A DNA stretch of 64,000 nucleotides. It comes from Caballeronia concitans (GTDB lineage: Bacteria > Pseudomonadota > Gammaproteobacteria > Burkholderiales > Burkholderiaceae). This document shows positions 42,959 to 60,546 of the stretch, piece by piece (positions within the stretch are counted from its first letter, which is position 1; each line of letters opens with the position of its first letter). The DNA is taken from NCBI RefSeq assembly GCF_001544615.1, contig NZ_FCNV02000006.1, positions 186,001 to 250,000 of the forward strand. Direction: 5' to 3'. Both the position numbers and the translations under genes were made by a program. The notes beneath the pieces were generated by a model. It had not been told where the DNA came from. It saw only the letters and a program-made list of their open reading frames with translations, and searched no databases.

Positions 42959-44239
42959 CTATTCAGCAAGCAGTGAAAGCTGGTCCGGCGTGGCGTTGCT
43001 GATCGTCTGAGCCAACCGTGGCCCTTGGAGGAACTCGTTAGGCGCGGATGTTACCGGTGCTTCGATCTCGCCGGCGTTTGCAGGCGTAACAGTCGGCAAA
43101 GGACCGCCTTTTGCAAGTAACCGATAAAGCGCCTGCCTTGAAATTCTCAGGCGCTTTGCGGCCTCTGATTTGACGCCGTTCGCCGCATCAAGAGCGGCGA
43201 TCGCCTGCTCGAAGCTCACCACAGGTCGCGACAGGCGCTCCGCCGTCGCGAAGGTTGAGATGTAGGCTGTCGCCTTCGATGCCAGGCTATGCCCCGCGGC
43301 TTCGACCAGCTGTTGCATGGCCCTTTGGTGAAGTTCCGGATCGGGCCGATGATCAGGCAGTTTGATCGGTGCCGGCACCCCGGTTATAGCCTCGTACATC
43401 TTCTGGAGGTAAGCGTGGCGCAGTCCGTGAACCGTGACGCCCAAGCCACTACGCGTGATGCCCTCCTTCTGGAGAACGTGGTAGAAATGGCGGTACCACC
43501 GCTTGAGCGACCATGGCTCCGGAATCATTGAACCGGTGCGCGGATTCGCGAGCCTCGCTGCACGGATGAGGACTTCGTATTGCCATTCAGCATCGATCGG
43601 CACGAGCCGGGGCCTGCCGCCCTTCGTACCATCGATGACGTGCAAGTGGCCCGAAACGCGCAGGCATTGCAGTGGACGCAGAAGCATGCTTTCTTGCGCG
43701 CGCAAGCCGAACGTCGCTTGCAGTTCGACTTGAATGGCGACCCACCGATCATGCTCGCAGAGCCGGGAGATCACTTCGTTGACGTCAACGTTAGCCGCCT
43801 CCCAGGATTTATCTTCCTGCGCGACGTAATAGCGGCGATAACCGTCGGGCCGCTTGATGTAGTCATCGACCGTGCCCACGAGCTGGTGCTTTTTCATCCA
43901 GGCGGCGAGCGTGCGCCAGTAGGTCAGTTTGTTTTCGACCGTGCCGGGCGCCTGGTCTTTTTCCGCGACCCAAAGCTTCACGAGAAACGCGATGTGCTTT
44001 TCGGAAAGGTTCCAAGGCGACTGTAGAGCGAAGCCGCCCTTTCGCAGTTCGCGAAAGCCGGCGATCAGATGCCGTACGCGATAGGTCTGCGTCTTGATGG
44101 AGATTGCGTTAGACGTGACGCGCGTCGTGCTGTGGGGTTTCGATAGGTGCCGATTGAAGAGTTCGGCGAGCTCTTTGGTGAGCCGCTGAGGCAGCCCTGC
44201 ATTGTCCAACAGGGGTAAAAAGTTGAATTGGATCTTCAT
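42959..44239 (-). CDS. tyrosine recombinase/integrase with C-terminal Fis-like HTH
   Basis: The 426-aa protein has an N-terminal SAM-like DNA-binding part (YRVRHLIAGFRELRKGGFAL) and a tyrosine-recombinase catalytic domain. Active residues visible are Arg 180 (FGLRAQES), Lys 206 (DGTKGGRPR), HGLRHAY at 271-277 (His and Arg), GHS at 316-318 and the nucleophile Tyr about 326 (TAYIS). After the catalytic Tyr a Fis-type helix-turn-helix follows (SEAAKRLRISRQALYRLLAK, about 358-377), unusual for integrases. It is intact and the only apparently live mobility gene in the island, so it is a good candidate for island mobilisation. No tRNA or clear att repeat is found beside it. Confidence 0.9.
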   Translation of the reverse strand: MKIQFNFLPLLDNAGLPQRLTKELAELFNRHLSKPHSTTRVTSNAISIKTQTYRVRHLIAGFRELRKGGFALQSPWNLSEKHIAFLVKLWVAEKDQAPGTVENKLTYWRTLAAWMKKHQLVGTVDDYIKRPDGYRRYYVAQEDKSWEAANVDVNEVISRLCEHDRWVAIQVELQATFGLRAQESMLLRPLQCLRVSGHLHVIDGTKGGRPRLVPIDAEWQYEVLIRAARLANPRTGSMIPEPWSLKRWYRHFYHVLQKEGITRSGLGVTVHGLRHAYLQKMYEAITGVPAPIKLPDHRPDPELHQRAMQQLVEAAGHSLASKATAYISTFATAERLSRPVVSFEQAIAALDAANGVKSEAAKRLRISRQALYRLLAKGGPLPTVTPANAGEIEAPVTSAPNEFLQGPRLAQTISNATPDQLSLLAE

Positions 44240-46551: not shown

Positions 46552-47976
46552 TTAGAGATAGAAACGCTGCAGTACCGCTTTCAACACCTCTACGTACGAG
46601 TAGATCGGAAAAGCCATTAGCAAGGCTATTGCGATCGCCCTGAGTTGGATTCCGTCGCTGGCGTACACGGGCTCCTCCGCCCTCCGCGCTACCGCCATCG
46701 ATGTAGCAAGCGCGAGCAACGGCGCTAGCCCGAGAAAATATCGTCCTTGTACGCCTTCGACGACATCTTTACCCACCGGCGTCCAAAACAGATAGAGCGA
46801 TCCAAAGATCATGCCAAGACAAGCTAGACACGCAAGCACGACGACGCCTGCGTTCAAGAGCGAATGGACTGTGATCCGCCTCAGTTCGAACACCGGAAGA
46901 ATAAGCGCCAGAAGAAAACTGCCAAACGCAACGCGGTAGTACGCTGTGTTCATATGCGTATCCAGCCAGCCAAGAACGCCGACAAAGCTCTCCCAATAAA
47001 AGGCGCCCCACACTTTGAACGTCGCCAGCGCAATGTGCGGAACACTCTGCAGGTGCGAGAGAAGGAAATGTATTTGCCCTGGAATCGAACGCGGAGGTGT
47101 TACGGCGATCCATGCCGTATAGCTGAACAGCTTGGTGACGGCAACGGATAGCAGCCCGGTTCCGACGGCCGCAATCACGCGCCGCAGCGGATGATATGGG
47201 GTTTCTTCGACGCCAAACCGAAGCCCCGGCAAGAACGCCAACAGCAATAACCCGACATAAGGCGGCCGCGCCGTGATACACAGCGTCGCCAGCAATGCCC
47301 CGGCGACGAGGTTGCGTGCAAGCAGCACGCGATTATCATGTTGGAACCGATCCGCATACGCGATCAGCAGGAAGCACGCGGGGATCAATAGTACTTCGTC
47401 GCTGACGGAAGAGAAGAGCATCAACGCACAAGGCAGCAAACCCACGACGAAGATCGCTAAGGCAACGCGCCGCGCCACGAATATTGCCCACGCCGTAAGC
47501 GCAACGCTAACCAGAAGATCGAAGATGCATGCGAGCGTGTAGGTTCGTACCACAGGCTGATTCAGCGCACGGCCAACTCGGAAGGCAAATGCTTGCGGGA
47601 GATAAGCATAAGCGGGATAGATCGCCGAACCGGGAAACTCGGCGTCCACCTTATGGCCGGTCCATTGCAGGCCGATCGTGCGGGCGCGCCATGCCGCGTC
47701 GTACTTCTTATCGGTCCGCGTAGCCATGGGAAACATTATCTTCGCCAGGTCAACCAGGGCCGAATCCACTTCGCCCCCCGATGAATTGCCTATTCGCTTC
47801 GCGATTATCCCGCCGTCCGAGACCTGGAAAGCGCGGTACACATGGAAGATCGCGTCCGGCGTCTGCAGCGGTGGCGTGACCACCGCAAGGTACAGTCCGG
47901 TCGGAACAGCAAAACAGACGTAAAAGACGGCAAGCTGTTGCCGGGCCAGGTTGGCAAATCGTTTAAGGTAGCTCAT
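46552..47976 (-). CDS. DUF2142 membrane protein, probable GT-C-like glycosyltransferase
   Basis: The 474-aa protein has about ten to twelve membrane helices. The first extracytoplasmic loop carries TPPLQTPDAIFHVYRAFQVS with an Asp in the place where GT-C enzymes have their catalytic acid. Further landmarks are GSAIYPAYAYLPQAFAFRVG, YTLACIFDLLVSVALTAWAI and, near the C-terminus, WTPVGKDVVEGVQGRYF. All of these are shared with the paralogue at 52145. DUF2142 has no proven reaction that I know of. It follows the polyprenyl-phosphate GT2 (48424) and flippase-like (48077) genes on the same strand, which fits a terminal glycosyltransferase that takes a sugar from the polyprenyl phosphate in the periplasm. 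Confidence 0.88.
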   Translation of the reverse strand: MSYLKRFANLARQQLAVFYVCFAVPTGLYLAVVTPPLQTPDAIFHVYRAFQVSDGGIIAKRIGNSSGGEVDSALVDLAKIMFPMATRTDKKYDAAWRARTIGLQWTGHKVDAEFPGSAIYPAYAYLPQAFAFRVGRALNQPVVRTYTLACIFDLLVSVALTAWAIFVARRVALAIFVVGLLPCALMLFSSVSDEVLLIPACFLLIAYADRFQHDNRVLLARNLVAGALLATLCITARPPYVGLLLLAFLPGLRFGVEETPYHPLRRVIAAVGTGLLSVAVTKLFSYTAWIAVTPPRSIPGQIHFLLSHLQSVPHIALATFKVWGAFYWESFVGVLGWLDTHMNTAYYRVAFGSFLLALILPVFELRRITVHSLLNAGVVVLACLACLGMIFGSLYLFWTPVGKDVVEGVQGRYFLGLAPLLALATSMAVARRAEEPVYASDGIQLRAIAIALLMAFPIYSYVEVLKAVLQRFYL

Positions 47977-48076
47977 GAATCAGCAGATGCAGTGGCGAGC
48001 CAGGCGCGACCGCCGTCGCGCAAGGGCACGTGTCGGCCAAACGGCGAGGAAGAGATGTGCGTCGACTGAACCAGCA

Positions 48077-48427
48077 TTAGCCAAAGCGGCTGGTTACGAT
48101 CAGTCCGCACATGATCATGATCGTTCCAATCAGGTAACCGCGCGTCAGCGACTCGCCAAACGCAAAATGGCTCGCAATGGGCACGATGACGAAGCAAAGT
48201 GCCATGAAGCTATACGCTCGATTGAGCGAGACGAAACGCAGGAGATTGATCCACAGCAGTGTCGCCACGGCATAAATGACGAGGGCGCAAAAAACCGTGA
48301 CCAGCGCGCGGGGGGACATCCAGGTGCCTGCCGCCTGAATTTCCAGGCCGGCTTTCTTGAACAGTAGCTGGCCACTCGCAATAATTGCGACGCACGCTAA
48401 CGTCCAGATGATCTGCAAAAAGGTCAT
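48077..48427 (-). CDS. SMR/EamA-like small flippase protein
   Basis: A four-helix membrane protein of 116 aa: IIWTLACVAIIASGQLLFKK, ALVTVFCALVIYAVATLLWI, AYSFMALCFVIVPIASHFAF, ESLTRGYLIGTIMIMCGLIV. GQLLFKKAG and the Y-A-F-M pattern are typical of the EamA/SMR group that includes ArnE and ArnF, which flip undecaprenyl phosphate-linked sugars. Its ATG overlaps the stop of the GT2 gene (ATGA), so the two are coupled. It would carry the polyprenyl-phosphate sugar made by that GT2 across the inner membrane for use by the DUF2142 protein downstream. Confidence 0.87.
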   Translation of the reverse strand: MTFLQIIWTLACVAIIASGQLLFKKAGLEIQAAGTWMSPRALVTVFCALVIYAVATLLWINLLRFVSLNRAYSFMALCFVIVPIASHFAFGESLTRGYLIGTIMIMCGLIVTSRFG

Positions 48428-49473
48428 GACGCTTTAGGGTTAGTTGTTGACGTCGGCGTGTCGTTCGCTTCAACTGCGTCCATCACTGCATGTTGTCCGT
48501 CTAGCGTTCGAGGCAGCAAGCGACCGATCGGCCTTGAAGGCGTGTTGGCGACGTCGTAATTCAGGAAGCTAAGGATCAATTGCAGTCCGATGAGGATAGG
48601 AAGCGCGGCAACCATGATCGTGCCGAGCGGCGTAGGGATATGGCTTGAAATGGCGGAGATCCAATGCGAGACGCCAAATGCTAAACCAAAAAGCAGCAAG
48701 AGCCCACCGATAACCAGTTCGAATGTGGCCGCTGTCATGTCGCGGAGAAAATAGTTATAAAAAATCCGCTTGAAAAGATTGCTGGCGTGTTTTCCAGAAA
48801 ACTCGAACAGCACTTTCGATATTTTCAAATTCGATTCTTCGTCCGCGTAATGCGCATCCATGGGAACATCTGCGACGACCGCGCGCAATGTATTCAAGCG
48901 AAACAGCATGTCCGTTTCGAAGAAATAGCGCTGACTGATTTTATCGAGTGGTAAATGACTGGCAACCTGAGCGCTGATTGCAGTATAGCCATTGGTTGGA
49001 TCGAACACATTCCAGTAGCCAGTGGAAATCTTCGTCATGAACGACAAACCCGCATTGCCGATCAGCCGTGCCTTGGGCATCCGGCCAATATGTGTGAGAT
49101 CGTAGAAGCGATTACCCTTGGTGTAGTCCGCCCAGCCTTCAATGATCGGAAGCGCGAAATACGGCAGAAGGGCAGGATCCATTTGCCCGTCGCCATCGAT
49201 TTTGACGATCACGTCTGCGCCATTTTCGATTGCCGCACGGTAACCAGTCATAACCGCACCGCCCACGCCCAGATTTTGCTGGTGATACTCGATCCGCACG
49301 CGCTCATCGTTGCAATTGTCGCGGACGAAGTCTCCGCTCTTTACCGGACAGCAGTCATCGACCACGTAAATCTGCGATACCTCAGGGCCGATTTTCTCGA
49401 TCACGCCCAGAATGTGCTCTTTGACCTTGTAACTGGGAATTACGACAGCGATGATGGTGCGCTTTTTTCGCAC
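48424..49473 (-). CDS. polyprenyl-phosphate GT2 glycosyltransferase (GtrB/DPMS-like)
   Basis: The 349-aa protein has an N-terminal GT-A domain: IAVVIPSYKVKEHILGVIEK, QIYVVDDCCPVKSGDF, GAVMTGYRAAIENGADVIVK and the metal motif KIDGDGQMDP. FDPTNGYTAISAQVASHLPL and YFFETDMLFRLNTLRAVVAD follow. Two C-terminal membrane helices (FELVIGGLLLLFGLAFGVSH and GTIMVAALPILIGLQLILSF) match the layout of polyprenyl-phosphate glycosyltransferases such as GtrB. The start codon is GTG (49473) with only a weak upstream purine stretch. It overlaps the small flippase gene by 4 bp. Sugar unknown. Confidence 0.92.
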   Translation of the reverse strand: MRKKRTIIAVVIPSYKVKEHILGVIEKIGPEVSQIYVVDDCCPVKSGDFVRDNCNDERVRIEYHQQNLGVGGAVMTGYRAAIENGADVIVKIDGDGQMDPALLPYFALPIIEGWADYTKGNRFYDLTHIGRMPKARLIGNAGLSFMTKISTGYWNVFDPTNGYTAISAQVASHLPLDKISQRYFFETDMLFRLNTLRAVVADVPMDAHYADEESNLKISKVLFEFSGKHASNLFKRIFYNYFLRDMTAATFELVIGGLLLLFGLAFGVSHWISAISSHIPTPLGTIMVAALPILIGLQLILSFLNYDVANTPSRPIGRLLPRTLDGQHAVMDAVEANDTPTSTTNPKAS

Positions 49474-50440
49474 GATGAATCCCGTAACGTAAGCGGACCT
49501 ATCCCGCGTTTATTGAGCGAAGCTTGAGCCGTAACAAGCCCGGAAATGTTCGATTTCGAGGACGTCGCGCCTTGCGCATTCCAGCGAGGTCACGTGCAAC
49601 CCAAATCGGGATAACACTTTACCCGTTAGAGTGCGTTCACACAATCGCGCGCCCAAGCGGTCGTTGACTATTTGCGCAACACGTGCTAGCTGATAGCGCC
49701 CGCGATACTTGGCCCGTTCTGTCGGACTTTTTTTGGGTCTTGCCTGAACGGACGGCAACTCACTGTGCCGCGCGAAGGACCTGGCCTTGATGTCTGCGCG
49801 TAAGGTCCTGAGCAACAGACGAACTATCATCCTGCTGCAAGACCGCGAGCAACGCGTCGATTACGCCGATATTGTGACGCTTGATACAGAAGTCCATCAG
49901 GATCAGTAGGTCCGACACCTGAGACAACGACTTGGTTGTCCAGAAAGATTAGGTATCCACGATGGACGGCAGCCATCCGGACAGGTTATGCCGGTGAATA
50001 CGTTGCAAGGCAAGCGGCATATCGATATATTCGCGAGACTGCAACGCATGCGCGAACTCGACCGTCTCAAAGTCGCTTTGCTTCGCACTTCGCAAAAGCG
50101 AGCTCCGAAAGTCGAGGGCAGCCTGAAGTAAGGAGCGCGCCGATCAGCCAAGGCGCGAACGGAACAATGCCGAACTGGGCGCTCGGACCATAGATACAGA
50201 TACGGTGCGCGCGCCAGAAGAGCGGTGCTAACTCCGGGTCCAGTAGTGAATCAATCAGCCGGCAATCGGACAAGTCCGCAGCGAAATGTGGTGTCGCAAG
50301 CTTCATCTGCGTGCGCTCCGACCTGTATTTTAGTGTTGAATTTTGAATGCTTCGAGCATAGATCCGAACTGACCGAACGTCCGATAATCCCAGCGCAGTC
50401 GCACGCCGCGCCGCGAACAGAGCCCCGTCGTCGATTCTGG
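49474..50440. other. decayed sequence between GT2 and wzt
   Basis: Nearly 1 kb with broken frames in an otherwise compact cluster. A 106-codon minus-strand frame (49510-49830; KKSPTERAKYRGRYQLARVA) and parts of other frames (SDLLILMDFCIKRHNIGVID near 49870; ALQSREYIDMPLALQRIHRH near 50000) read like protein but are not joined. A methyltransferase remnant is given separately. Probably the site of a deleted or rearranged O-antigen gene. Confidence 0.5.
50067..50306 (-). pseudogene. methyltransferase N-terminal remnant
   Basis: From ATG 50306 the frame reads MKLATPHFAADLSDCRLIDS, PELAPLFWRAHRICIYG, then PSAQFGIVPFAPWLIGALL, and soon stops. The last part resembles SAWLEHAPFAFWLMSVLRPG at the start of the methyltransferase domain in the 56959-60546 protein, where the glycine motif would follow next; here the sequence diverges (TSGCPRLSELAFAKC) and ends after 79 codons. 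It is a truncated relative. Whether the short product is made is unknown. Confidence 0.6.
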
Positions 50441-51190
50441 CTATTTCACACTGGCTTCGTAGGCGGCAAGCACTTCCTCGGTCGCCCCGAACATCCGCAC
50501 GTTGCCCTGTTCCAGCCACAGCGCCTTTTCGCACGTTTTGCGGATGGTCGCATTGTCGTGCAACGCAAGCACCACAATCTCGGAACGCTCGTGGAGCTCC
50601 GCCAATCGCTGGTTAGCCTTTTCCTTGAAAGCGGCATCGCCAACGCCCATGACTTCATCAAGCAAAAGGATATCAGCGTCCACCGCAGTGGATATGGCAA
50701 AGCCCAGCCTGACACGCATCCCACTCGAATAGGTTCGGATGGGGAGATCGAGAAAGCTGTCCAGTTCCGAGAACGCGGCGATTCCCTCTTCCTTCTCGGC
50801 AATCTCCTCGTCCCTCATGCCAAGAAGAAGACCGCGCAGGCGAATGTTCTGCCGCCCAGTCGAGTTTTCATCCATACCGAGGCTGATATCGAGCAGCGGC
50901 ACCGTCTTGCCTTGCGTCTCGACGACGCCTGATGATGGCGCGTAAATGCCCGCAAGCACACGCAGCAGCGTCGATTTTCCTGCGCCGTTATGCCCGACTA
51001 GTCCGAGTCTGTCTCCGCTTTCGATGCGAAACGAGAGATCGTTCAGTGCTCGCAATACCACCGTGTCGGAACGTTCATTCACGTCCGAATTACGATTGCG
51101 CAACGAAGCGAGCCGCTTTTTGAGCGAGCGACTCTGCACGTCATAAATAGGCAAGTCCAGTGACGCGTTTTTAAGGGCGATGTAAGCCAT
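50441..51190 (-). CDS. wzt: O-antigen ABC transporter ATP-binding protein
   Basis: This ABC ATPase of 249 aa has GLVGHNGAGKSTLLRVLAGI (Walker A, about residues 66-74), TYSSGMRVRLGFAISTAVDA (signature) and ILLLDEVMGVGDAAFKEKAN (Walker B), followed by VVLALHDNATIRKTCEKALW (switch His). It powers export of the finished undecaprenyl-linked O-antigen. It lacks the C-terminal carbohydrate-binding domain of longer Wzt proteins, so chain-length control by cap binding is not expected. It lies 1 bp after wzm. Confidence 0.96.
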   Translation of the reverse strand: MAYIALKNASLDLPIYDVQSRSLKKRLASLRNRNSDVNERSDTVVLRALNDLSFRIESGDRLGLVGHNGAGKSTLLRVLAGIYAPSSGVVETQGKTVPLLDISLGMDENSTGRQNIRLRGLLLGMRDEEIAEKEEGIAAFSELDSFLDLPIRTYSSGMRVRLGFAISTAVDADILLLDEVMGVGDAAFKEKANQRLAELHERSEIVVLALHDNATIRKTCEKALWLEQGNVRMFGATEEVLAAYEASVK

Positions 51191-51191
51191 T

Positions 51192-51971
51192 TCAAATCCA
51201 ATACGGAATGCGCTTCTCGAAACGCCCCGTAAGCACGAGCGCGATTACCCACCCAATCACGGCAACGCCGGCGCACACAGCCCAACTGAGCATGCTCGGA
51301 AAGACACCAACAAGCGGACTGCGCACCAGTTCGATGAAATAGGCGAGCGGATTGAATTCGACGATCCACGAGAATCGGTTGAGCGACGTCGGCTTGTAGA
51401 TAATGGGCGTGACGTAAAACGCGACTTGCAGCAGCGCAGCGATGATCTGCGGCAAGTCCCTGAAGCGCGCGGAAACGAGCGCAGCGAGCATCGCAATCCA
51501 AGTCGCGTTCAGCAGGAAAAGCGCGAAACCGGGAATGATGAGAGGCAGGGCGCGGAAGTCGCGTACTCCAAAAATGAGTAGCAGCGCGACAACTATGATG
51601 AGGTTGTGGCCCAGAATGACCGTATTGCGCCACAAAACCTGCAGAATGAAAACCAGGCGTGGTGTGCGTATCTGGCGTATATACGTGGCGCTATTAATGT
51701 ATGCGAGTGCGCCTTCGCTGACGATGGAGGAGAACATCGTCCAAAACACCAGGCTCACTGCGAGGAACGGCAGGTAGTCGTGCATGTCCTGACCGAATAG
51801 CGTGCCGTATACGAGCCCTATGGATGTCACCATAACGCTGGTGCTGATCGTGAGCCAGAAAGGCCCTATGCGCGAGCGAGCGTAGCGCTGCCGAATCTCG
51901 AGCCAGCCGAGAAGCATCCAGAGACGCCAACGGACAAGGCTTTCGCGCAGATCGCAGATTGCGACGTACAT
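51192..51971 (-). CDS. wzm: O-antigen ABC transporter permease
   Basis: The 259-aa ABC-2 type permease has six membrane helices and the family block LEIRQRYARSRIGPFWLTIS (coupling helix with R-Y-x-R-S-x-x-G-P-F-W) near the N-terminus. RLVFILQVLWRNTVILGHNL and VAFYVTPIIYKPTSLNRFSW follow further on, and EFNPLAYFIELVRSPLVG near the end. It is the membrane channel for lipid-linked O-antigen. With wzt directly downstream, this shows that the O-antigen uses the ABC-transporter pathway, while the EPS locus is of the Wzy type. Confidence 0.96.
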   Translation of the reverse strand: MYVAICDLRESLVRWRLWMLLGWLEIRQRYARSRIGPFWLTISTSVMVTSIGLVYGTLFGQDMHDYLPFLAVSLVFWTMFSSIVSEGALAYINSATYIRQIRTPRLVFILQVLWRNTVILGHNLIIVVALLLIFGVRDFRALPLIIPGFALFLLNATWIAMLAALVSARFRDLPQIIAALLQVAFYVTPIIYKPTSLNRFSWIVEFNPLAYFIELVRSPLVGVFPSMLSWAVCAGVAVIGWVIALVLTGRFEKRIPYWI

Positions 51972-52144
51972 GCTAGTTATTCTCTAAGGGAAGATATGCG
52001 ATGCCGCGACAACCACCCGCGACAAACCCGCATTGTAACTGATGCGTCTCCCGGGGAACGTTGAGCTCGGCAGTCATCAGACCTTCAACGGTGTCCGGTT
52101 CGCACGGAGTGTGCCGACCCGTTGGGTGGAGCGCGTTTTAGCGG

Positions 52145-53563
52145 TCATTGCACATAGAACCGGTCGATGATCGTCGTAACCGCCTGCTGAAAAGCATAAA
52201 ACGGCAGGGCAAGCACGATGAGCGTCAGCACCCGCCTTAGAAGTGCAACACCCTTGCTATCGTTGCGCCAACGCAGGTTCAGCTTGGGCATGGCGAGCGC
52301 CAGCAGCGGGAGGAGCGCCGTGAGATAGCGCCCTTGCACACCCTCCACGACCCACTGCCCCACCGGCGTCCACGTGAGATAAAGCGCAGCGAAGGTCAAT
52401 CCGAAGCAGATGAGCATCGGCAAAACGAGCATCAGCCGCCGCCTGTTGCTTGCCTCATCGAACGAGTTGCGATCAAGCGACGTAGCGATCAACGCGGCGA
52501 CGCATGCCGCGCCGGCCGCCAGGTAGAAGCTTCTGGTGAGCGGCGCATCCAGCCAGCCGAGCACACCGGTGAAACTGGTGAAATAGAACCAGGCGTTGGT
52601 GCGCAGAGTCTCAAGCGCAATCGTGAACACCGCTGCCGGATGATGCTGCAAGAAATTGAGTTGCCCGGACACTGAGCGAGGTGGGCCGGGTGGGAGCCAC
52701 GCTGGCGACTGAAAGACTTTCATCGCTATGAAACTAGCCGCGCCCGTCGCAACCGCGATGGCGATCCGCGTCCAGCAACGATAACCCTCGCCCTTTGCCA
52801 CTCGCAGTCCGGGGTAAAACAGCAGAAGCGCGAGCGCGCCGTACGGCGGACGCGCCGAAGCGCATAAGGCAACCGCGGTGCCGAACACCCATCGCCAACG
52901 ACCTTGCAACACCCATTGCAGCGCGACGAAACGCTCGAAATACGCGATCGTCAAGAAGCATAGTGGAATCATGACGACTTCCTGACTCACGGATGCCGAG
53001 ATCATCATCGTGGTCGGCAACAACGCAAGGAAAAAAATGAAGCGCGACGACGTTCGCGCAACTCGCAGCGCCCAAGCGGTCAGCAGCATGCTTACCAGTA
53101 AGCCCACCAGGCAGGTCAGCCTGTAAGTGCTCCACACGGTCATATGCAATGCACGACCGACCGCCACAGCCAGCGCTTGCGGGACGTATGTGAAGGCCGG
53201 ATAGATTGCCGTATTGGGAAAACCGGTCTCGATGAGTTCGCCAGTCCACCGAAGCTGCCGCACGGACTCGGCCAAGGCGCGGTTCGCCTTGACGTTGGCG
53301 CGCGCTTTAATCGGTTCGTACGTGGTTGCTAATTTGACGGCGTTCGAATCGATTAGCCCGCCCGATGTCCCATCGAAGCGATAGCCCCGCCACTGACCTT
53401 CTGATATCTGAATCGCGCGATAGAAATGGTTGGCGGCATCCGGCGTCTGAAAAGGCGGTGTTGCATATACCAAGAACAACCCGAAAGGCATCGCGAAGAA
53501 AACATAAATCCTCCACAGTGGAAGCCGGTCGATCTCAGCGAGAAACGCTCCAATTGATCGCAT
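52145..53563 (-). CDS. DUF2142 membrane protein, paralogue 2
   Basis: The 472-aa membrane protein is a paralogue of the one at 46552. Shared landmarks are TPPFQTPDAANHFYRAIQIS (first outer loop, conserved Asp), SGGLIDSNAVKLA, NTAIYPAFTYVPQALAVAVG, YRLTCLVGLLVSMLLTAWAL and WTPVGQWVVEGVQGRYLTAL. ATG 53563 is chosen because it gives the same N-terminal length as the paralogue; an in-frame ATG at 53602 is possible. It is divergent from the GT2 plus GtrA pair at 53716-55070, with about 150 bp between the start codons, which suggests a shared promoter region. Probable GT-C-like glycosyltransferase, not proven. Confidence 0.88.
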   Translation of the reverse strand: MRSIGAFLAEIDRLPLWRIYVFFAMPFGLFLVYATPPFQTPDAANHFYRAIQISEGQWRGYRFDGTSGGLIDSNAVKLATTYEPIKARANVKANRALAESVRQLRWTGELIETGFPNTAIYPAFTYVPQALAVAVGRALHMTVWSTYRLTCLVGLLVSMLLTAWALRVARTSSRFIFFLALLPTTMMISASVSQEVVMIPLCFLTIAYFERFVALQWVLQGRWRWVFGTAVALCASARPPYGALALLLFYPGLRVAKGEGYRCWTRIAIAVATGAASFIAMKVFQSPAWLPPGPPRSVSGQLNFLQHHPAAVFTIALETLRTNAWFYFTSFTGVLGWLDAPLTRSFYLAAGAACVAALIATSLDRNSFDEASNRRRLMLVLPMLICFGLTFAALYLTWTPVGQWVVEGVQGRYLTALLPLLALAMPKLNLRWRNDSKGVALLRRVLTLIVLALPFYAFQQAVTTIIDRFYVQ

Positions 53564-53715
53564 GTGTCGGTGTGGCGCGGGCGGGCCGTTGCAGGACGCC
53601 ATCGCCGCAGATTGGGAAAGTCCGGATTGTACCGAAGGGCAGACTGCCTATTCACCACAAGCTTAGCTATACAATACGTCAGTCATCGCGGCCCATGCCG
53701 ATTATCCGGATCATC

Positions 53716-54663
53716 ATGCCCAATCGTTACCCTGACCTGCGAGTGGCCGTCGTCATCCCTTGTTATAACGAAGCGGCCGCCATCGCCTCGGTGATCCGTG
53801 ATTTCAAGACTCACTTACCAGCAGCTTCGATCACGGCTTTTGATAACAATTCGACGGACGGCACTGCGGACATAGCGCGCGGCGCCGGTGCACGAGTCGT
53901 CGCGGTACCGTTCCAGGGGAAGGGAAATGTCGTGCGGCGCATGTTCGCGGACATCGACGCAGACGTCTATGTCATGGCCGACGGTGACGCGACATACGAC
54001 GCAGCCGTCGCCCCTGAGCTCGTCGATACATTGATCCGTAACAAGCTCGACATGGTGGTCGGCTCCCGCCTGAGTGACGAACAGACCGCTTACCGGCTGG
54101 GACACCGGTTCGGCAACGTCATGCTGACGCAATGCGCTGCGACCATCTTCGGGAAAACGTTCAAAGACATGCTTTCGGGGTACCGCGTGTTCTCCCGCCG
54201 TTATGCCAAGACGTTTCCTGCGCATTCGAAGGGCTTCGAGATCGAGACCGAACTCGCGGTACACGCGCTGAGCATGCGCATGCCGGTTGCCGAGGTGGCG
54301 ACCAACTATAAGTCGCGCCCCGAAGGGTCGCACAGCAAGCTGAACACATATCGCGACGGTTTCAGGATTTTGATGACCATCATTCGGCTATTTAAATCCG
54401 AGAAGCCGTTTGCGTTCTTCACAGCCGGTTTCGCCATCTGCGCCGCCCTATCCGTGGCTCTCGCGATTCCGGTCTTTCAGACGTTCATTGAGACCGGTCT
54501 CGTACCGCGCATTCCGACGGTCATCCTGAGCAGCGGTTTGGCGATGGTTGGCGCGATACTGCTGATCTGCGGCATCGTGCTCGACACGGTCACCCACGGC
54601 CGCAATGAGAATAAGCACCTCGCCTATCTTTCGATTCCCGCATGGGACCCGAAGGACGATTGA
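53716..54663 (+). CDS. polyprenyl-phosphate GT2 glycosyltransferase (GtrB-like)
   Basis: This GT2 enzyme of 315 aa has LRVAVVIPCYNEAAAIASVI, AFDNNSTDGTADIARGAGAR, VVAVPFQGKGNVVRRMFADI and the metal motif VYVMADGDATYDA. DMLSGYRVFSRRYAKTFPAH and GFEIETELAVHALSMRMPVA follow. Two C-terminal helices (FAFFTAGFAICAALSVALAI, SSGLAMVGAILLICGIVLDT) match GtrB and dolichyl/polyprenyl-phosphate transferases. It would load a sugar onto undecaprenyl phosphate. The start could also be ATG 53695, seven codons earlier. The GtrA gene follows after 2 bp. Confidence 0.93.
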   Translation: MPNRYPDLRVAVVIPCYNEAAAIASVIRDFKTHLPAASITAFDNNSTDGTADIARGAGARVVAVPFQGKGNVVRRMFADIDADVYVMADGDATYDAAVAPELVDTLIRNKLDMVVGSRLSDEQTAYRLGHRFGNVMLTQCAATIFGKTFKDMLSGYRVFSRRYAKTFPAHSKGFEIETELAVHALSMRMPVAEVATNYKSRPEGSHSKLNTYRDGFRILMTIIRLFKSEKPFAFFTAGFAICAALSVALAIPVFQTFIETGLVPRIPTVILSSGLAMVGAILLICGIVLDTVTHGRNENKHLAYLSIPAWDPKDD

Positions 54664-54665
54664 AC

Positions 54666-55070
54666 ATGAGTTCGCAATTTCTGCGCTTCGCTTTTGCGGG
54701 CGGCGTTGGCTTCCTGGTCGACGCGGGCGTGCTTTATGTGATGCTCCATCTCGGCGTTGGCCCGTATGCCGGGCGGCTGGTCTCTTTCCTTTGCGCTGTC
54801 TTTGTGACGTGGCGGATAAATCGGCGCATCACGTTCGCGGCAACGAATAACCGTTCGATCTGGCGCGAGTTCTATGAGTATCTGCTTGCCATGATCGGCG
54901 GCGGCGCGTGCAACTACGGTGCATACGCGCTCGCGCTAAGACTTTTGGGCGCAGATGTCTGGACGCCGCTAGCGGCTGTGGCTGCGGGCTCCATCGCTGG
55001 CATGGCGGTGAATTTCATGCTCGCGAAGCTTTGGGTGTTCCGCCACAGCCAAGCGGGCGACCAGCGCTAG
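54666..55070 (+). CDS. gtrA: GtrA family flippase protein
   Basis: A four-helix protein of 134 aa with the GtrA family pattern: LRFAFAGGVGFLVDAGVLYV, AGRLVSFLCAVFVTWRINRR with TFAA, EFYEYLLAMIGGGACNYGAY and GSIAGMAVNFMLAKLWVFRH. GtrA proteins flip undecaprenyl phosphate-linked sugar to the periplasm in serotype-converting systems. It starts 2 bp after the GtrB-like gene, so the two are clearly one unit; the third partner is probably the divergent DUF2142 gene. Confidence 0.93.
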   Translation: MSSQFLRFAFAGGVGFLVDAGVLYVMLHLGVGPYAGRLVSFLCAVFVTWRINRRITFAATNNRSIWREFYEYLLAMIGGGACNYGAYALALRLLGADVWTPLAAVAAGSIAGMAVNFMLAKLWVFRHSQAGDQR

Positions 55071-56958: not shown

Positions 56959-59900
56959 TCAGAACGACATGGTCGCGGCCGCAGGCTGTGCGGCACTCGC
57001 GGCTGCTTCCTTCAGTAATGCGTGCAGTTCGACGGCTTGTTCGTCGAACAGGCGGATGCGGTCCTTATACGGATTGCGATAGCCATCAAGCCTTCGCGGA
57101 TCGTCAAGCAAAGCGGAGATAGCCGCCGTAAGCTCTGCGGGGTCTTCTGTCAGTGCGATCACCTGTCCATTTTCGCCCTCCACGATGTCTTCCACGGCGC
57201 CCCCCGCGTCGGTCGAGATGACCCACACGTCACGAACCAGCGCCTCACGCACCGTCATGCCGAAGCTTTCCTTGCACTGCGTTGGGAAGAGCAGTACGTC
57301 GATCCCGGCGAAGAATTGGTCAATATCGTCCTGAGTGTAGGCCGGCACCACATGCAGCTTGCCCTTAACCTTCCAGGTGTGCGTCTCGATGGTGTGCATG
57401 CCCAAATTTCGCGCGTTATCCACGACGAACAGTTCATAATTCGAGCGCGGCAGTCGCCTGAACGCATCCTTGATGAGTTGAGCGCCCTTAATGGGCGTTT
57501 CACCGCCGACGTAGCCGAAGCGCAGTGAGCGGCCGGACAGCGGCGGACGCTCGATGTGCTTCGCGGGCGCCATAATGCCGTTCTTGTTGAGCAAGATCTT
57601 CGCGGGATCGAAGCCGTTATCCGCGTAAAGGCCACGGAAGAACTCGCTTGGAGCGAGCAGCATGGCCGCCGACTTGAGGATGTCGTGCAACCGGAACTGC
57701 CGATACGTGTTGAGACCGGCATCATCGACGCACTTGGAGCAAATGTTCAGGTCGATCTTGCGCTGGAAGCAATAGCGATGCTCGCCGGTGATCATGAATT
57801 GCCGGCCGCATATCCACCAGGCATCGTGCAATGTGGCGACGTAGGGAATTTTTTCTTCCTGACATACTTCGGCAATGCTTGCGCCGATGCCTTGAATGCT
57901 GTGCAAGTGGACCACGTCAGGGCGAACTGCACGCACGGCTTCGCGGAACGCTTTCACCGACTTCGGATTCTCAAAACCGTATGCCGGATCGGCCTCCTGC
58001 GGCAGTCCCATACCAAACACGCCTCCTGCGCGCGCCTCATAGCGCTGAAGAGCGTACGCGTGCACCTCGTTTGCAGGCAGCGACGTGAACATGACGTATT
58101 CCATGTCCTGCGTGTCGTTGATACGCTTCGCCATCGCTTCAGCGATGATCGTGGCGCCCCCGAAACTGCGCGGCTCGAAGTAGACGTTGACGCCGAGAAC
58201 GCGCAACTTCTTCCGCTCCGTTTTGTATGGCGCGAGAACCGGCGCCACCTGGCGCTCGGAGATGGATTGCGGTGAATAGTCGGCCAGAACGTGGTCGTAA
58301 GCGCGGGCAGCCATGTCATGCCGAAGTTCGGCATCTTCGATTAGTGCGAGCAATGCGTCGCTCCAACCTGCTGGCGTTTCAGCCAGGAAACCCGTATCGC
58401 CGTGGCGAATCGCTGTCTTGAACGCGGCTGCGGGCGAGCAGACGGATGGCAGCTTGACGATAGAGGCCTCGAGATATTTGATGTTCGACTTCGCATCGTT
58501 GAAGATGCTGTTCTCGAGCGGCGCTATGCTGATGTCGCACTCGGCCAGCCGGGCCAGATAATTCGGATAACTTGAAGACGGCAGCCGCTCGATTTGCGAG
58601 GCGACGTCCGCATAATCGTCCGGCAGCCCGAGTTCGCCGATGATGCGCAACTTGACATCGGGCCGCTGCCGCAAGACCATCTTGATGCCCGCTGCCGCGA
58701 CACGAAAGTCTGCATCGTGCGTCTTGGTCCCCGAGCCATAGACGATGCGCACGAACTTGTCCTTCCTACGCCTGCTTGACGCGTTGATCGTACTAGCCGT
58801 GCGCACCGTTTCCTCATCGAGCGCATTCTCGATCACGAACGTCTTCTTGACGCCTGCATCGATCATGGCCTCCGACAAGCCTTGTGTCGATGCGATGCTG
58901 TAATCACATGCGAGCATGGCCGCGCGGTATAGTGGAACACCCGCGAGCACTCCACGCTTGGCCTCTAGTCCAACGTCCCGTAAGTTCGAGTTGAGAATGT
59001 ACTTCTCAGCATCAAAAATCAGGTCGTCGACTTCCCAGAACGTCACGAGACCCAATGCTTTGGCGCGCTCGATCATTGCCATAGGGCCCGGAAAGCCGGG
59101 CACGCGGTAAAAAATGACCATCGAGTGCGTCTGCAGCAAGCTCATGCACGACTGCGTGTCGGTCCAGCTCGCCACCGAGCAATCGACGCCGAGGCTCTCG
59201 ATCATGCGCTGTTTCTGTGTGACGCGATATTTCAGGCACTGAGGAATGCTCGTCTCAGCAATGATCAGCACGCGCAACGCGAGGCGCTCCATCGCGGGCA
59301 GAATGGGCAATACCGATTCGAAAGCGGGCGCCATCAACACGCCGCCAGCGCCGCCCTCGCGCAGCAACCCGGAAATGCCGCGCCGTCGCGACGTTTCAAC
59401 GATCTTGCGCAGCGTCGCGTTCCAGCCATGCTGATTTATGGAGTTTCGAACGATGGCTGAGAAGTGGCGCATCCGCGACAGCGCTGTTCGGGGACGACGC
59501 ATCGAAATCGAGGCAGCGCGGACTGGCGCCGTCAGCCGCCATGACGTGGACGTGCGCAACGCAACCACTTCTTCGTTGGCGCGGGCCAGCGTCTCGTGCG
59601 CAAGCTTTCGAGCGTCCTGCTCCATGGCGAGTTCGCTCGCCAGATCTTCGGAGCGCAATGTCTCGTGCTCCAGTTCGAGCTCCAGGCGCCGATGCTCATC
59701 CTTGAGATCGGCGAGTTCGGCCATGTAGCGGTCACGGTCCTCAGTCGCGCGGTCGAGCAAACTATGCGTCGCCTCCAGTTCACTGATGCGTTCGCCGAGC
59801 GTGGTGCGCGTCTCATTTTGCGCCTGTTGCAGAGCAATTGCGCGGCCGAGTCGCGCATAGATCTCGCGCGTTCCATTGCCTGCATCGTCCGTCGCATCGA

Positions 59901-60546
59901 ACAGCGAGCGCAATGCTTGGGGAATCTCGGTGCCGACAGCCAGGACGCCAAGACCATAGCCATGGAGAAATTCGAAACAAGGGTAGCGATGACTCAGTTC
60001 CGACCACAAGCGCCAAACACCGAAGTTTCGTTCACGGACGTTTGTGTCGTGTAGAAGGACGATCCCGCGGACAGACATTTTCCTGAGCCAGCTTTCGAAG
60101 TCGTGCCGCGCACTTTCGTAGTCATGCTGGCCGTCGATATGCAGCAGGTCAATGGAGCCGTCAGGAAAGTGTGCGAGCGCATTATCGAAACTGGAACGGA
60201 TCAGGCTCGAGAATCTAGAATATGTGTCGTTGTTGTATTGGGATAGATCGAGAAACACCGACTCGTCATAACGTCCGGCGTGGTCATCACCGAGCCATGT
60301 ATCGACGGCATAACAGCGCGTCGAAAGCTCCAGCCGTTCGACAGCCTGACACCAGACTCCGTATGAAAACCCGTTATGGGTGCCGAGTTCAACGATCGTT
60401 CCTGGACGCAGCACGCTCATCAGCCAGAACGCGAACGGAGCATGCTCCAGCCACGCCGAGCGTACGATGCGCGCTGGCCACCAGAACGACTCCGGTTTTA
60501 CCAAGTCAATGCTCCTCGATTCTGACCGACTTTCCATTTCCGCCAT
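56959..60546 (-). CDS. methyltransferase - coiled coil - double GT4 glycosyltransferase fusion
   Basis: The 1195-aa protein combines at least four parts. Residues about 25-220 form a class I methyltransferase (IVELGTHNGFSYGVW as the SAM motif, IDLLHIDGQHDYESARHDFE, IVLLHDTNVRERNFGVWRLW). Residues about 240-330 form a coiled coil (ISELEATHSLLDRATEDRDR) ending in RTSTSWRLTAPVR, a linker often seen before polysaccharide GTs. Residues about 430-770 form a first GT4-type domain (FVRIVYGSGTKTHDADFRVA, DISIAPLENSIFNDAKSNIK). Residues about 780-1180 form a second GT4 domain (LGVNVYFEPRSFGGATIIAE, PTQCKESFGMTVREALV, VISTDAGGAVEDIVEGENGQ). It could methylate, terminate or extend the O-antigen, with the coiled coil as spacer. 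Substrates are unknown. Confidence 0.92.
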   Translation of the reverse strand: MAEMESRSESRSIDLVKPESFWWPARIVRSAWLEHAPFAFWLMSVLRPGTIVELGTHNGFSYGVWCQAVERLELSTRCYAVDTWLGDDHAGRYDESVFLDLSQYNNDTYSRFSSLIRSSFDNALAHFPDGSIDLLHIDGQHDYESARHDFESWLRKMSVRGIVLLHDTNVRERNFGVWRLWSELSHRYPCFEFLHGYGLGVLAVGTEIPQALRSLFDATDDAGNGTREIYARLGRAIALQQAQNETRTTLGERISELEATHSLLDRATEDRDRYMAELADLKDEHRRLELELEHETLRSEDLASELAMEQDARKLAHETLARANEEVVALRTSTSWRLTAPVRAASISMRRPRTALSRMRHFSAIVRNSINQHGWNATLRKIVETSRRRGISGLLREGGAGGVLMAPAFESVLPILPAMERLALRVLIIAETSIPQCLKYRVTQKQRMIESLGVDCSVASWTDTQSCMSLLQTHSMVIFYRVPGFPGPMAMIERAKALGLVTFWEVDDLIFDAEKYILNSNLRDVGLEAKRGVLAGVPLYRAAMLACDYSIASTQGLSEAMIDAGVKKTFVIENALDEETVRTASTINASSRRRKDKFVRIVYGSGTKTHDADFRVAAAGIKMVLRQRPDVKLRIIGELGLPDDYADVASQIERLPSSSYPNYLARLAECDISIAPLENSIFNDAKSNIKYLEASIVKLPSVCSPAAAFKTAIRHGDTGFLAETPAGWSDALLALIEDAELRHDMAARAYDHVLADYSPQSISERQVAPVLAPYKTERKKLRVLGVNVYFEPRSFGGATIIAEAMAKRINDTQDMEYVMFTSLPANEVHAYALQRYEARAGGVFGMGLPQEADPAYGFENPKSVKAFREAVRAVRPDVVHLHSIQGIGASIAEVCQEEKIPYVATLHDAWWICGRQFMITGEHRYCFQRKIDLNICSKCVDDAGLNTYRQFRLHDILKSAAMLLAPSEFFRGLYADNGFDPAKILLNKNGIMAPAKHIERPPLSGRSLRFGYVGGETPIKGAQLIKDAFRRLPRSNYELFVVDNARNLGMHTIETHTWKVKGKLHVVPAYTQDDIDQFFAGIDVLLFPTQCKESFGMTVREALVRDVWVISTDAGGAVEDIVEGENGQVIALTEDPAELTAAISALLDDPRRLDGYRNPYKDRIRLFDEQAVELHALLKEAAASAAQPAAATMSF

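What the first reader, a model, noticed from the sequence alone, without database searches (positions are those of the whole stretch)
46552..55070. Two parallel Gtr-like three-component glycosylation modules with DUF2142 as the probable terminal transferase
Module A: GT2 with two C-terminal helices (48424-49473), a four-helix EamA/SMR protein overlapping it by 4 bp (48077-48427), and a DUF2142 protein (46552-47976). Module B: a GtrB-like GT2 (53716-54663), GtrA 2 bp later (54666-55070), and a divergent DUF2142 paralogue (52145-53563). In known GtrABC systems GtrB loads a sugar on undecaprenyl phosphate, GtrA flips it, and a strain-specific polytopic protein moves it to O-antigen. Here the third slot is filled twice by DUF2142, whose first outer loop has a conserved QTPDA-x2-H-x-YRA with an Asp where GT-C enzymes are catalytic, plus a conserved WTPVG-x3-VEGVQGRY near the C-terminus. 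The two modules differ in flippase class (SMR-like against GtrA) yet flank the Wzm/Wzt exporter. This predicts a function for DUF2142.
Basis: partly seen in the sequence, partly recalled or inferred. Interest (0 to 1): 0.78.

Follow-up and report, generated by a model that had tools for sequence, protein, structure and literature searches.

The report
Two sugar-decorating modules sharing one enzyme family
Two neighbouring gene modules in this surface-polysaccharide cluster each appear to load a sugar on a lipid, flip it across the membrane and attach it outside the cell with a protein of a family so far called only "unknown function", which sequence evidence places among known membrane sugar-transfer enzymes.

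Summary
In detail: two modules flank Wzm/Wzt, each with a GT2 carrying two C-terminal helices, a small flippase-like protein (SMR/ArnF-like in A, GtrA in B) and a DUF2142 protein; these are the genome's only two DUF2142 genes. A profile of 80 DUF2142 proteins matches PMT_2/ArnT-type GT-C enzymes (71-87%; full-profile controls at most 2.6%). Four ligand-binding positions described for the GT-C/PMT clan are filled in 80/80 (the EL5 Arg partly by selection). No cytoplasmic-loop position is conserved. Such a GT2 is the immediate neighbour of DUF2142 in 19 of 78 loci (3.5 expected). P. mimosarum carries module A and P. unamae module B after the same two glycosyltransferase genes. GT2 and flippase are conserved (65-78%), DUF2142 is not (42-47%), as in Gtr systems. 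Where a flippase is near, class A GT2 has SMR (9/9) and class B has GtrA (4/4), yet donor class changed at least 5-6 times on the DUF2142 tree. DUF2142 as a GT-C transferase is already implied in print for lactococcal WpsJ/WpsI; the Gram-negative donor-swapping arrangement was not found in print. Activity, sugar and acceptor are untested.

The parts
46552..47976 (-). DUF2142 protein A (474 aa): predicted GT-C-type terminal transferase of module A
   Evidence: Pfam PF09913 160.9 bits; D, H, R of the EL1 motif, acid at 195, K/R at 238 and GVQGRY present in alignment A2
48077..48427 (-). EamA/SMR-type small membrane protein (116 aa): predicted lipid-sugar flippase of module A
   Evidence: Pfam EamA 30.4 bits, cut-off 28.2; NCBIfam ArnF 47.7 bits, below its cut-off of 99; 74% identical to the protein in the same module in P. 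mimosarum
48424..49473 (-). GT2 with two C-terminal helices (349 aa): predicted polyprenyl-phosphate sugar synthase of module A (class A)
   Evidence: Pfam Glycos_transf_2; PDB dolichol-phosphate mannose synthase 5mlz E 7.7e-9; 78% identical to P. mimosarum L024
50441..51190 (-). Wzt, ATPase of the polysaccharide ABC exporter
   Evidence: NCBIfam galactan_ABC_ATP 276.6 bits, below its cut-off of 400
51192..51971 (-). Wzm, permease of the polysaccharide ABC exporter
   Evidence: Pfam ABC2_membrane 57.1 bits; NCBIfam galactan_ABC_perm 240.3 bits, below its cut-off of 380
52145..53563 (-). DUF2142 protein B (472 aa from this start): predicted GT-C-type terminal transferase of module B
   Evidence: Pfam PF09913 174.5 bits; 43% identical to A
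53716..54663 (+). GT2 with two C-terminal helices (315 aa): predicted polyprenyl-phosphate sugar synthase of module B (class B, AglJ/GtrB-like)
   Evidence: PHROG GtrB-like 55 bits; NCBIfam AglJ 215 bits, below its cut-off of 325; PDB 5mlz E 3.1e-9; 76% identical to P. unamae L023
54666..55070 (+). GtrA-family protein: predicted flippase of module B
   Evidence: Pfam GtrA_DPMS_TM 81.2 bits, scanned from the longer ORF; 65% identical to P. unamae L023
55088..56941 (-). 617-aa GT2 glycosyltransferase; the modules of P. unamae and P. mimosarum lie directly after its relative
   Evidence: Pfam; L023 48.0% and L024 46.7% identical
56959..60546 (-). 1195-aa protein with a methyltransferase domain and group-1 glycosyltransferase domains
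   Evidence: Pfam; its relative follows Wzt in L023 and L024
45306..46475 (+). Acyltransferase_3 protein, possible polysaccharide acetylase beside module A
   Evidence: Pfam 87.6 bits

Best explanation
Each module is a three-component extracytoplasmic glycosylation system. The GT2 makes a polyprenyl-phosphate sugar at the inner face of the membrane, the small SMR-type or GtrA-type protein brings it to the periplasmic face, and the DUF2142 protein, a GT-C-type transferase of about 11 helices, moves the sugar to the polysaccharide exported by Wzm/Wzt. Inferred active site: Asp42 of EL1 near the acceptor hydroxyl, the EL2 acid at position 195 and Lys/Arg 238 holding acceptor and structure, and the EL5 arginine of VQGRY near TM10 on the donor phosphate. 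Shown here by sequence: family membership, remote homology to PMT_2/ArnT, residue conservation, gene context and module swapping. Inferred: catalytic activity, flippase activity, sugar identity and the acceptor polymer.
For: (1) hhalign of 80 DUF2142 against PMT_2: probability 86.8, E 4.3e-6, and 70.9, E 3.8e-5, without the fused protein L103. Full-profile controls: Wzy_C 2.6, MFS 0.2, Wzx 0.1; two reversed and 8 block-shuffled controls at most 0.6. (2) Position 195 falls on Asp142 of the genome's own ArnT, which by the PDB alignment (my counting, with a three-residue numbering offset) is the D158; Lys/Arg 238 falls on the PMT_2 lysine; in one low-confidence stretch PDE falls on the PMT_2 DE. 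(3) D42 80/80, D/E195 80/80, K/R238 80/80, R412 80/80; 11/11 for each in alignment A1 (9 found without the motif plus the 2 window proteins). (4) Positions at least 70% identical: 35 of 204 in predicted periplasmic segments (26 of 186 without EL5, which holds the search motif), 12 of 196 in helices, 0 of 72 in cytoplasmic segments; K+R per residue 0.074 outside against 0.203 inside. (5) GT2+2TM immediately adjacent in 19 of 78 loci, 3.5 expected within the same loci; 4 of 51 other polytopic proteins. (6) Modules in the same place in P. mimosarum (A) and P. unamae (B), with GT2 and flippase 65-78% and DUF2142 42-47% identical. (7) Sub-threshold DUF2142 matches G007:C1:975384 and G022:C1:3480523 are also PMT_2 matches, the second below the PMT_2 cut-off too.
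Against: No structure model could be made. The hhalign signal is absent for small subsets: Bacillota/CPR 1.1%, the Burkholderiaceae clade of four 1.3%; GT87 scored 0.1%; one subset scored 22% with Wzy_C. In the alignment led by ArnT the EL1 motif found no partner. Scanned one by one, the 80 DUF2142 proteins show no GT-C family other than DUF2142 among the 25 families listed of 33 matched, and one member matches Wzy_C at E 0.0046; the profile search of PDB sequences found no GT-C chain. The four DUF2142 of this lineage have PDA/PDS instead of PDE, and a passage says that replacing either acid abolishes function in the PMT structure 6p25. Most DUF2142 loci have no GtrA/SMR within two genes (67 of 78). 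VQGRY conservation in the 80 is partly by selection, since loci were found with that pattern.
Confidence: 0.72

Rival explanations
1. DUF2142 is a GT-C enzyme but moves whole oligosaccharides (polymerase or en bloc transferase, as proposed for lactococcal WpsI/WpsJ), not single sugars from the adjacent GT2.
For: Published proposals for lactococci (passages); in four loci of Bacillota and CPR (L062, L066, L095, L097) DUF2142 is next to a GT2 without C-terminal helices and a small three-helix protein, like the WpsA/WpsB arrangement.
Against: Both window modules have a GT2 with C-terminal helices most like dolichol-phosphate mannose synthase plus a small flippase-type protein, which points to a one-sugar donor; by general knowledge an ABC-exported polysaccharide needs no Wzy-type polymerase. 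The genome's four Wzy_C (O-antigen ligase-type) matches, two over the cut-off, lie on other contigs.
Confidence: 0.15
2. The window's DUF2142 proteins are inactive or altered relatives, because the PDE glutamate is lost.
For: A/S at position 43 in 4 of 4 members of the Burkholderiaceae clade against E in 75 of 80 overall; replacing the second acid abolishes function in PMT 6p25 according to a passage.
Against: Four diverged members (42-48% identical) keep open frames, Asp42, the EL2 acid, K/R238 and VQGRY, each beside a conserved donor module; the passage names only the first Asp as common to all the GT-C enzymes found there.
Confidence: 0.06
3. The modules are co-located by chance in a polysaccharide cluster and DUF2142 is not functionally tied to them (for instance it is another transporter).
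For: Polysaccharide loci are rich in GT2 and membrane genes; GtrA/SMR within two genes exceeds expectation only about twofold (11 of 78 against 5.2), and with other small membrane proteins counted in, direct adjacency is not significant (7 against 4.2).
Against: The test was made within the same loci, and GT2+2TM adjacency is still 19 against 3.5 expected; 4 of 11 loci not chosen by motif also have GT2+2TM adjacent; close triads in Spiribacter, Microvirga, Achromobacter, Halioglobus and Neisseria; no similarity to MFS or Wzx.
Confidence: 0.07

Closest known systems
GtrABC serotype-conversion systems (Shigella/Salmonella)
   Same: GT2 with C-terminal helices, GtrA-type flippase and polytopic third protein; conserved donor pair with a variable third protein (that this marks Gtr systems is partly recalled, the serotype-specific third protein is in a passage).
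   Different: Third protein is DUF2142; polymer exported by Wzm/Wzt; two modules with different flippase classes. No Gtr third protein was compared with DUF2142 here.
Arn system (ArnC, ArnE/F, ArnT)
   Same: Module A has a GT2, an ArnF-like SMR protein and a GT-C-like transferase whose EL2 acid aligns with ArnT and whose EL3 Lys/Arg aligns with the PMT_2 lysine.
   Different: Below the ArnE/ArnF cut-offs; the genome's ArnT is a separate gene on another contig; acceptor presumably the polysaccharide, not lipid A.
Lactococcal WpsJ/WpsI (cell-wall polysaccharide synthesis)
   Same: WpsI reported as DUF2142 with 11 helices, WpsJ sought by DUF2142; WpsJ called GT-C.
   Different: There proposed for oligosaccharide or polymer chains flipped by a Wzx-type protein, not single sugars with GtrA/SMR.
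Citrobacter youngae ORF12-15 (GT136) three-component system
   Same: Post-polymerisation decoration of a Wzm/Wzt-exported O antigen by a GT-C enzyme.
   Different: Donor enzyme is UbiA-like from PRPP and the flippase is MATE; not tested here whether GT136 and DUF2142 are related.
Klebsiella gmlABC
   Same: Operon next to the galactan locus that adds a branch sugar (passages); that this galactan is Wzm/Wzt-exported is recalled.
   Different: GmlC was not compared with DUF2142 here.

Membership tests
DUF2142 (PF09913) | Whole-model match above the Pfam cut-off | tested here: met
   160.9 and 174.5 bits over positions 4-395 and 3-395, cut-off 30.1
GT-C fold glycosyltransferases (PMT/ArnT type) | Detectable homology to a GT-C family | tested here: met
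   hhalign against PMT_2 71-87%, full-profile controls low; not seen for two of four subsets, not against GT87, not by single-sequence scans in the 25 listed families
GT-C fold glycosyltransferases (PMT/ArnT type) | Aspartate in the first extracytoplasmic loop | tested here: met
   D42 in 80/80; EL1 periplasmic in a hydropathy/charge topology; aligned with the PMT_2 DE only in a low-confidence stretch and unaligned
GT-C fold glycosyltransferases (PMT/ArnT type) | EL2 acid before TM4, EL3 basic residue after TM5, EL5 arginine before TM10 | tested here: met
   D/E195, K/R238, R412 each 80/80 (R412 partly by selection; 11/11 in A1); features as described in passages of PMC7801869
GT-C fold glycosyltransferases (PMT/ArnT type) | Three-dimensional GT-C fold | not testable with these tools
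GT-C fold glycosyltransferases (PMT/ArnT type) | Sugar transfer from a polyprenyl-phosphate donor | not testable with these tools
   needs biochemistry
Gtr-type three-component system | GT2 of polyprenyl-phosphate sugar synthase type | tested here: met
   5mlz best PDB match for both; PHROG GtrB-like for both, 33.8 and 55 bits
Gtr-type three-component system | GtrA-family flippase | tested here: inconclusive
   met in module B; module A has an EamA/ArnF-like protein instead
Gtr-type three-component system | Conserved donor pair with a variable third protein | tested here: met
   GT2 76-78%, flippase 65-74%, DUF2142 42-47%, Wzm/Wzt 65-68%; DUF2142 lower in 141 of 141 pairs with GT2 at least 50% identical; no other GT-C family used as control
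ArnE/ArnF | NCBIfam equivalog cut-off | tested here: not met
   ArnF 47.7 of 99, ArnE 30.3 of 92 bits

The most novel reading that the evidence does not exclude
DUF2142 is a donor-swappable GT-C platform. One acceptor-adapted transferase lineage is repeatedly re-paired with two unrelated donor cassettes (class A GT2 with SMR, class B GT2 with GtrA), so surface glycans change their side sugar by cassette exchange while the transferase stays matched to the polymer. The window, holding both cassettes, would build a doubly decorated polysaccharide. An alternative within this reading is that both donor routes make the same lipid-linked sugar by non-orthologous enzymes.
Probability: 0.35. Interest if true: 0.62.

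Novelty: new variant of a known kind. Interest (0 to 1): 0.52.

Why it matters
DUF2142 occurs in Bacillota, CPR bacteria, Proteobacteria and archaeal MAGs with little literature (3 papers in the held library). The residue mapping turns a domain of unknown function into a set of point-testable predictions (Asp42, acid 195, Lys/Arg 238, Arg412). The cassette swaps offer a natural experiment on how GT-C enzymes choose donors, and a simple genomic guide to side-chain modification in ABC-exported polysaccharides.

Tried and rejected
PDB profile search with the DUF2142 alignment gave one chance TPR match, E 0.65. Single-sequence Pfam scans of the 80 members gave no GT-C family among the 25 shown of 33 matched, and one Wzy_C match at E 0.0046. 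hhalign against GT87 failed although PMT_2 against GT87 gave 97%; the GT87 alignment held only 5 sequences. One subset gave 22% with Wzy_C over 57 columns; I treat it as noise, but it is the highest control. In the ArnT-led alignment the EL1 motif found no partner. I considered DUF2142 as ligase or polymerase and as transporter (see rivals). I considered tight covariation of E43 loss with D195E: it holds in 3 of 4 of the lineage only (L024 has S43 with D195; L052 and L073 have E43 with E195; L102 has T43 with D195) and is not claimed. Literature: 7 searches of one library; of nine papers I saw passages, of PMC11127046 also the outline and abstract; of the others only listings; no supplements. 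That Pfam groups DUF2142 in its GT-C clan is recalled and comes from no call.

Left out of the 80-row alignment: L025 (broken copy), L055 (two pieces), L030 (copy of L029), L071 (over-long ORF) and a partial second copy in L088; L008 (P0019) was not put into A1. Neighbour counts use 78 of 80 loci (two had no called DUF2142 gene or fewer than five genes), 69 after removing near-copies and broken ones, with the same 19. Genes were called by my own ORF rules. The GtrA, SMR and GT2 profiles were grown from window seeds and may miss divergent members. Pair counts use 318 of 406 pairs (both alignments at least 200 residues) and are not independent. TM counts are hydropathy-based and topology boundaries were placed by hand with charges in view. 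The 11 loci leave out G753 and G794, which repeat L044 and L061.
Full report
Observation. The window lies in a 6.17-Mb genome that holds exactly two DUF2142 matches, both here, and one GtrA match, the one in module B. Wzt and Wzm sit between the modules. Further genes of the cluster are a 617-aa GT2, a 1195-aa methyltransferase-glycosyltransferase protein and, on one side, an acyltransferase_3.

The donor side. Both GT2 proteins best match dolichol-phosphate mannose synthase 5mlz among solved structures (E 3.1e-9 for B, 7.7e-9 for A) and the GtrB-like phage family. GtrA of module B has a weak match (E 0.3) to the C-terminal part of the same synthase. The module A flippase candidate is EamA/ArnF-like but below the ArnE/ArnF cut-offs. 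The two GT2 proteins are only 28% identical over 198 residues, so the modules are not simple copies.

Is DUF2142 a GT-C enzyme? The profile matches PMT_2 with probability 86.8 (E 4.3e-6), or 70.9 (E 3.8e-5) without a natural fusion protein. Wzy_C, MFS and Wzx gave 2.6, 0.2 and 0.1; reversed and shuffled controls stayed at or below 0.6. Two of four phylogenetic subsets keep the signal (55 and 51%); the Bacillota/CPR subset and the four-member Burkholderiaceae clade do not (1.1 and 1.3%), and one control, the gamma/beta subset against Wzy_C, reached 22%. GT87 was not matched (0.1%). One by one, the 80 proteins match no other GT-C family among the 25 listed. In an independent sign, two sub-threshold DUF2142 matches in the order survey are also PMT_2 matches, G007 over and G022 under the PMT_2 cut-off; the other eight genomes with only sub-threshold matches were not searched with PMT_2.

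Residues. In the profile alignment the second conserved acid of DUF2142 (position 195) falls on Asp142 of the genome's own ArnT, a 557-aa protein that matches ArnT structure 5ezm at E 3.5e-136, and Lys/Arg 238 falls on the conserved lysine of PMT_2. The family PDE falls on the PMT_2 DE in the low-confidence part of one alignment and is left unaligned in the other. Passages of PMC7801869 name, for the GT-C/PMT clan, D55/E56 in EL1, D158 in EL2 before TM4, K203 in EL3 after TM5 and an EL5 arginine near TM10. DUF2142 has D42, D/E195, K/R238 and R412, each in 80 of 80. R412 lies in the pattern by which the loci were found, but it is also present in 11 of 11 proteins of alignment A1, of which nine came from a family search without that pattern and two are the window's. 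A hydropathy and charge topology gives 11 helices with the N-terminus inside; 35 of 204 periplasmic positions (26 of 186 without EL5), 12 of 196 helix positions and 0 of 72 cytoplasmic positions are at least 70% identical. Helix boundaries were set by hand, so this is supporting evidence only.

Context elsewhere. DUF2142 is rare: over the cut-off in 8 of 399 genomes of the order and 6 of 398 of the phylum sample, the window's own included in both. In 78 named loci a GT2 with two C-terminal helices is the immediate neighbour in 19, against 3.5 expected if another gene of the same locus is taken as anchor, and within two genes in 27 against 7.3. GtrA or SMR is the neighbour in 7 against 2.5 and within two genes in 11 against 5.2; counting any small three- or four-helix protein, direct adjacency is 7 against 4.2, not significant. 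Wzm/Wzt show no excess (10 against 11.6 within two genes), and 4 of 51 other polytopic proteins have such a GT2 adjacent. Of 11 loci not chosen by motif, 4 have GT2+2TM adjacent, one of them with an SMR gene. From genome-wide positions in 43 genomes, 5 of 50 DUF2142 genes over the cut-off have a GtrA gene within 5 kb, where uniform placement would give about 0.2 (my arithmetic; both families favour polysaccharide loci, so uniform placement is a generous null).

Module identity and exchange. In P. unamae (L023) the order Wzm-Wzt-1228 aa-GT2 is followed by a B-type module arranged as in the window (GT2/GtrA opposite to DUF2142); in P. mimosarum (L024) the same four genes are followed by an A-type module. 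In the window Wzm/Wzt lie between the modules instead, so what is shared is the 1195-aa gene, the 617-aa GT2 and then the module. Each of these two Paraburkholderia genomes has one DUF2142 match. Identities between window and L024/L023: GT2 78/76%, flippase 74/65%, Wzm 68/65%, Wzt 67/68%, but DUF2142 of the same module type 47/42%. The window's two DUF2142 proteins are 44% identical in this local comparison, and L023 and L024, with different donor modules, share 48%: DUF2142 similarity does not follow donor type. Among 318 comparable pairs (of 406), 141 have GT2 identity of 50% or more, and DUF2142 identity is lower in all 141 (medians 55.7 and 30.9). Fast divergence may be general to polytopic transferases; no other GT-C family was used as a control.

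Two donor classes. In a quick tree of GT2 proteins within two genes of DUF2142, all 9 class A proteins with a flippase-type gene within two genes have SMR and all 4 class B proteins with one have GtrA (Fisher p 0.0014, treating them as independent, which related pairs are not); four GT2 without C-terminal helices from Bacillota and CPR have a small three-helix protein next to them. One of the nine (L074) is a 185-aa fragment. SMR also occurs near three GT2 outside both classes (L054, L066, L097), and in L031 an SMR gene lies four genes from a class B GT2. On the DUF2142 tree the class label needs 6 changes among 25 labelled rows, at least 5 forced by well-supported branches, and is not clearly clustered (shuffled mean 7.6; 54 and 77 of 500 shuffles as low). 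For example L046 and L061 (A) group with L086 (B), and the window clade of four is half A and half B. L089 has one DUF2142 with a class A and a class B GT2 on its two sides. Donor cassettes therefore seem to be re-paired with DUF2142 repeatedly.

Lineage variant. The four Burkholderiaceae DUF2142 proteins carry PDA or PDS where 75 of 80 have PDE, and three of the four have Glu instead of Asp at 195. The first Asp, named as common to the GT-C enzymes found there, is kept in all.

What is known. In the held library DUF2142 appears in 3 papers and PF09913 in 1 (listing only). Passages of PMC12599335 give WpsI as a DUF2142 protein with 11 helices and use DUF2142 to find WpsJ. Passages of PMC10821137 and PMC9746298 call WpsJ a GT-C glycosyltransferase. 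The Citrobacter system of PMC11127046 (abstract and passages) shows post-polymerisation decoration of a Wzm/Wzt O antigen by a GT-C enzyme with another donor route. The class of machine is thus known; the DUF2142 version in Gram-negative ABC-exported polysaccharides, its two donor classes and their exchange were not found in print in the 7 searches.

Verdict. The most interesting residue is the exchange of donor cassettes around one transferase family.

Noticed in passing
window 49474-50440: About 970 bp between module A and Wzt hold only short ORFs; the two I scanned (106 and 154 aa) match no Pfam family at E 0.01. It may be the remnant of a decayed gene.
   Followed up: partly
window 42959-44239: An integrase-like protein with a C-terminal Fis-type helix-turn-helix (Integrase_1 49.3 bits, HTH_8 30.4 bits) near the edge of the polysaccharide cluster.
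   Followed up: no
L103 (G015:C1:1818176): An 888-aa open frame that, read by eye, starts with a GT2-like part and a GtrA-like membrane part and ends in PMT_2: possibly all three components in one polypeptide.
   Followed up: no
L089:4726-8909: A single DUF2142 gene with a class B GT2 on one side and a class A GT2 on the other.
   Followed up: partly
L005, L006, L007, L020, L022, L061, L064, L086: DUF2142 proteins of about 595-646 aa with an extra C-terminal region after the membrane part, possibly an accessory binding domain.
   Followed up: no
L025:1-1549: In the record of Candidatus Burkholderia brachyanthoides the DUF2142 gene upstream of Wzm/Wzt is broken into several frames.
   Followed up: no
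one or more of the 80 members of alignment A2: TPR families match in one member each (best ANAPC3, E 2.3e-5), probably the same protein; a combination recalling the TMTC proteins discussed.
   Followed up: no
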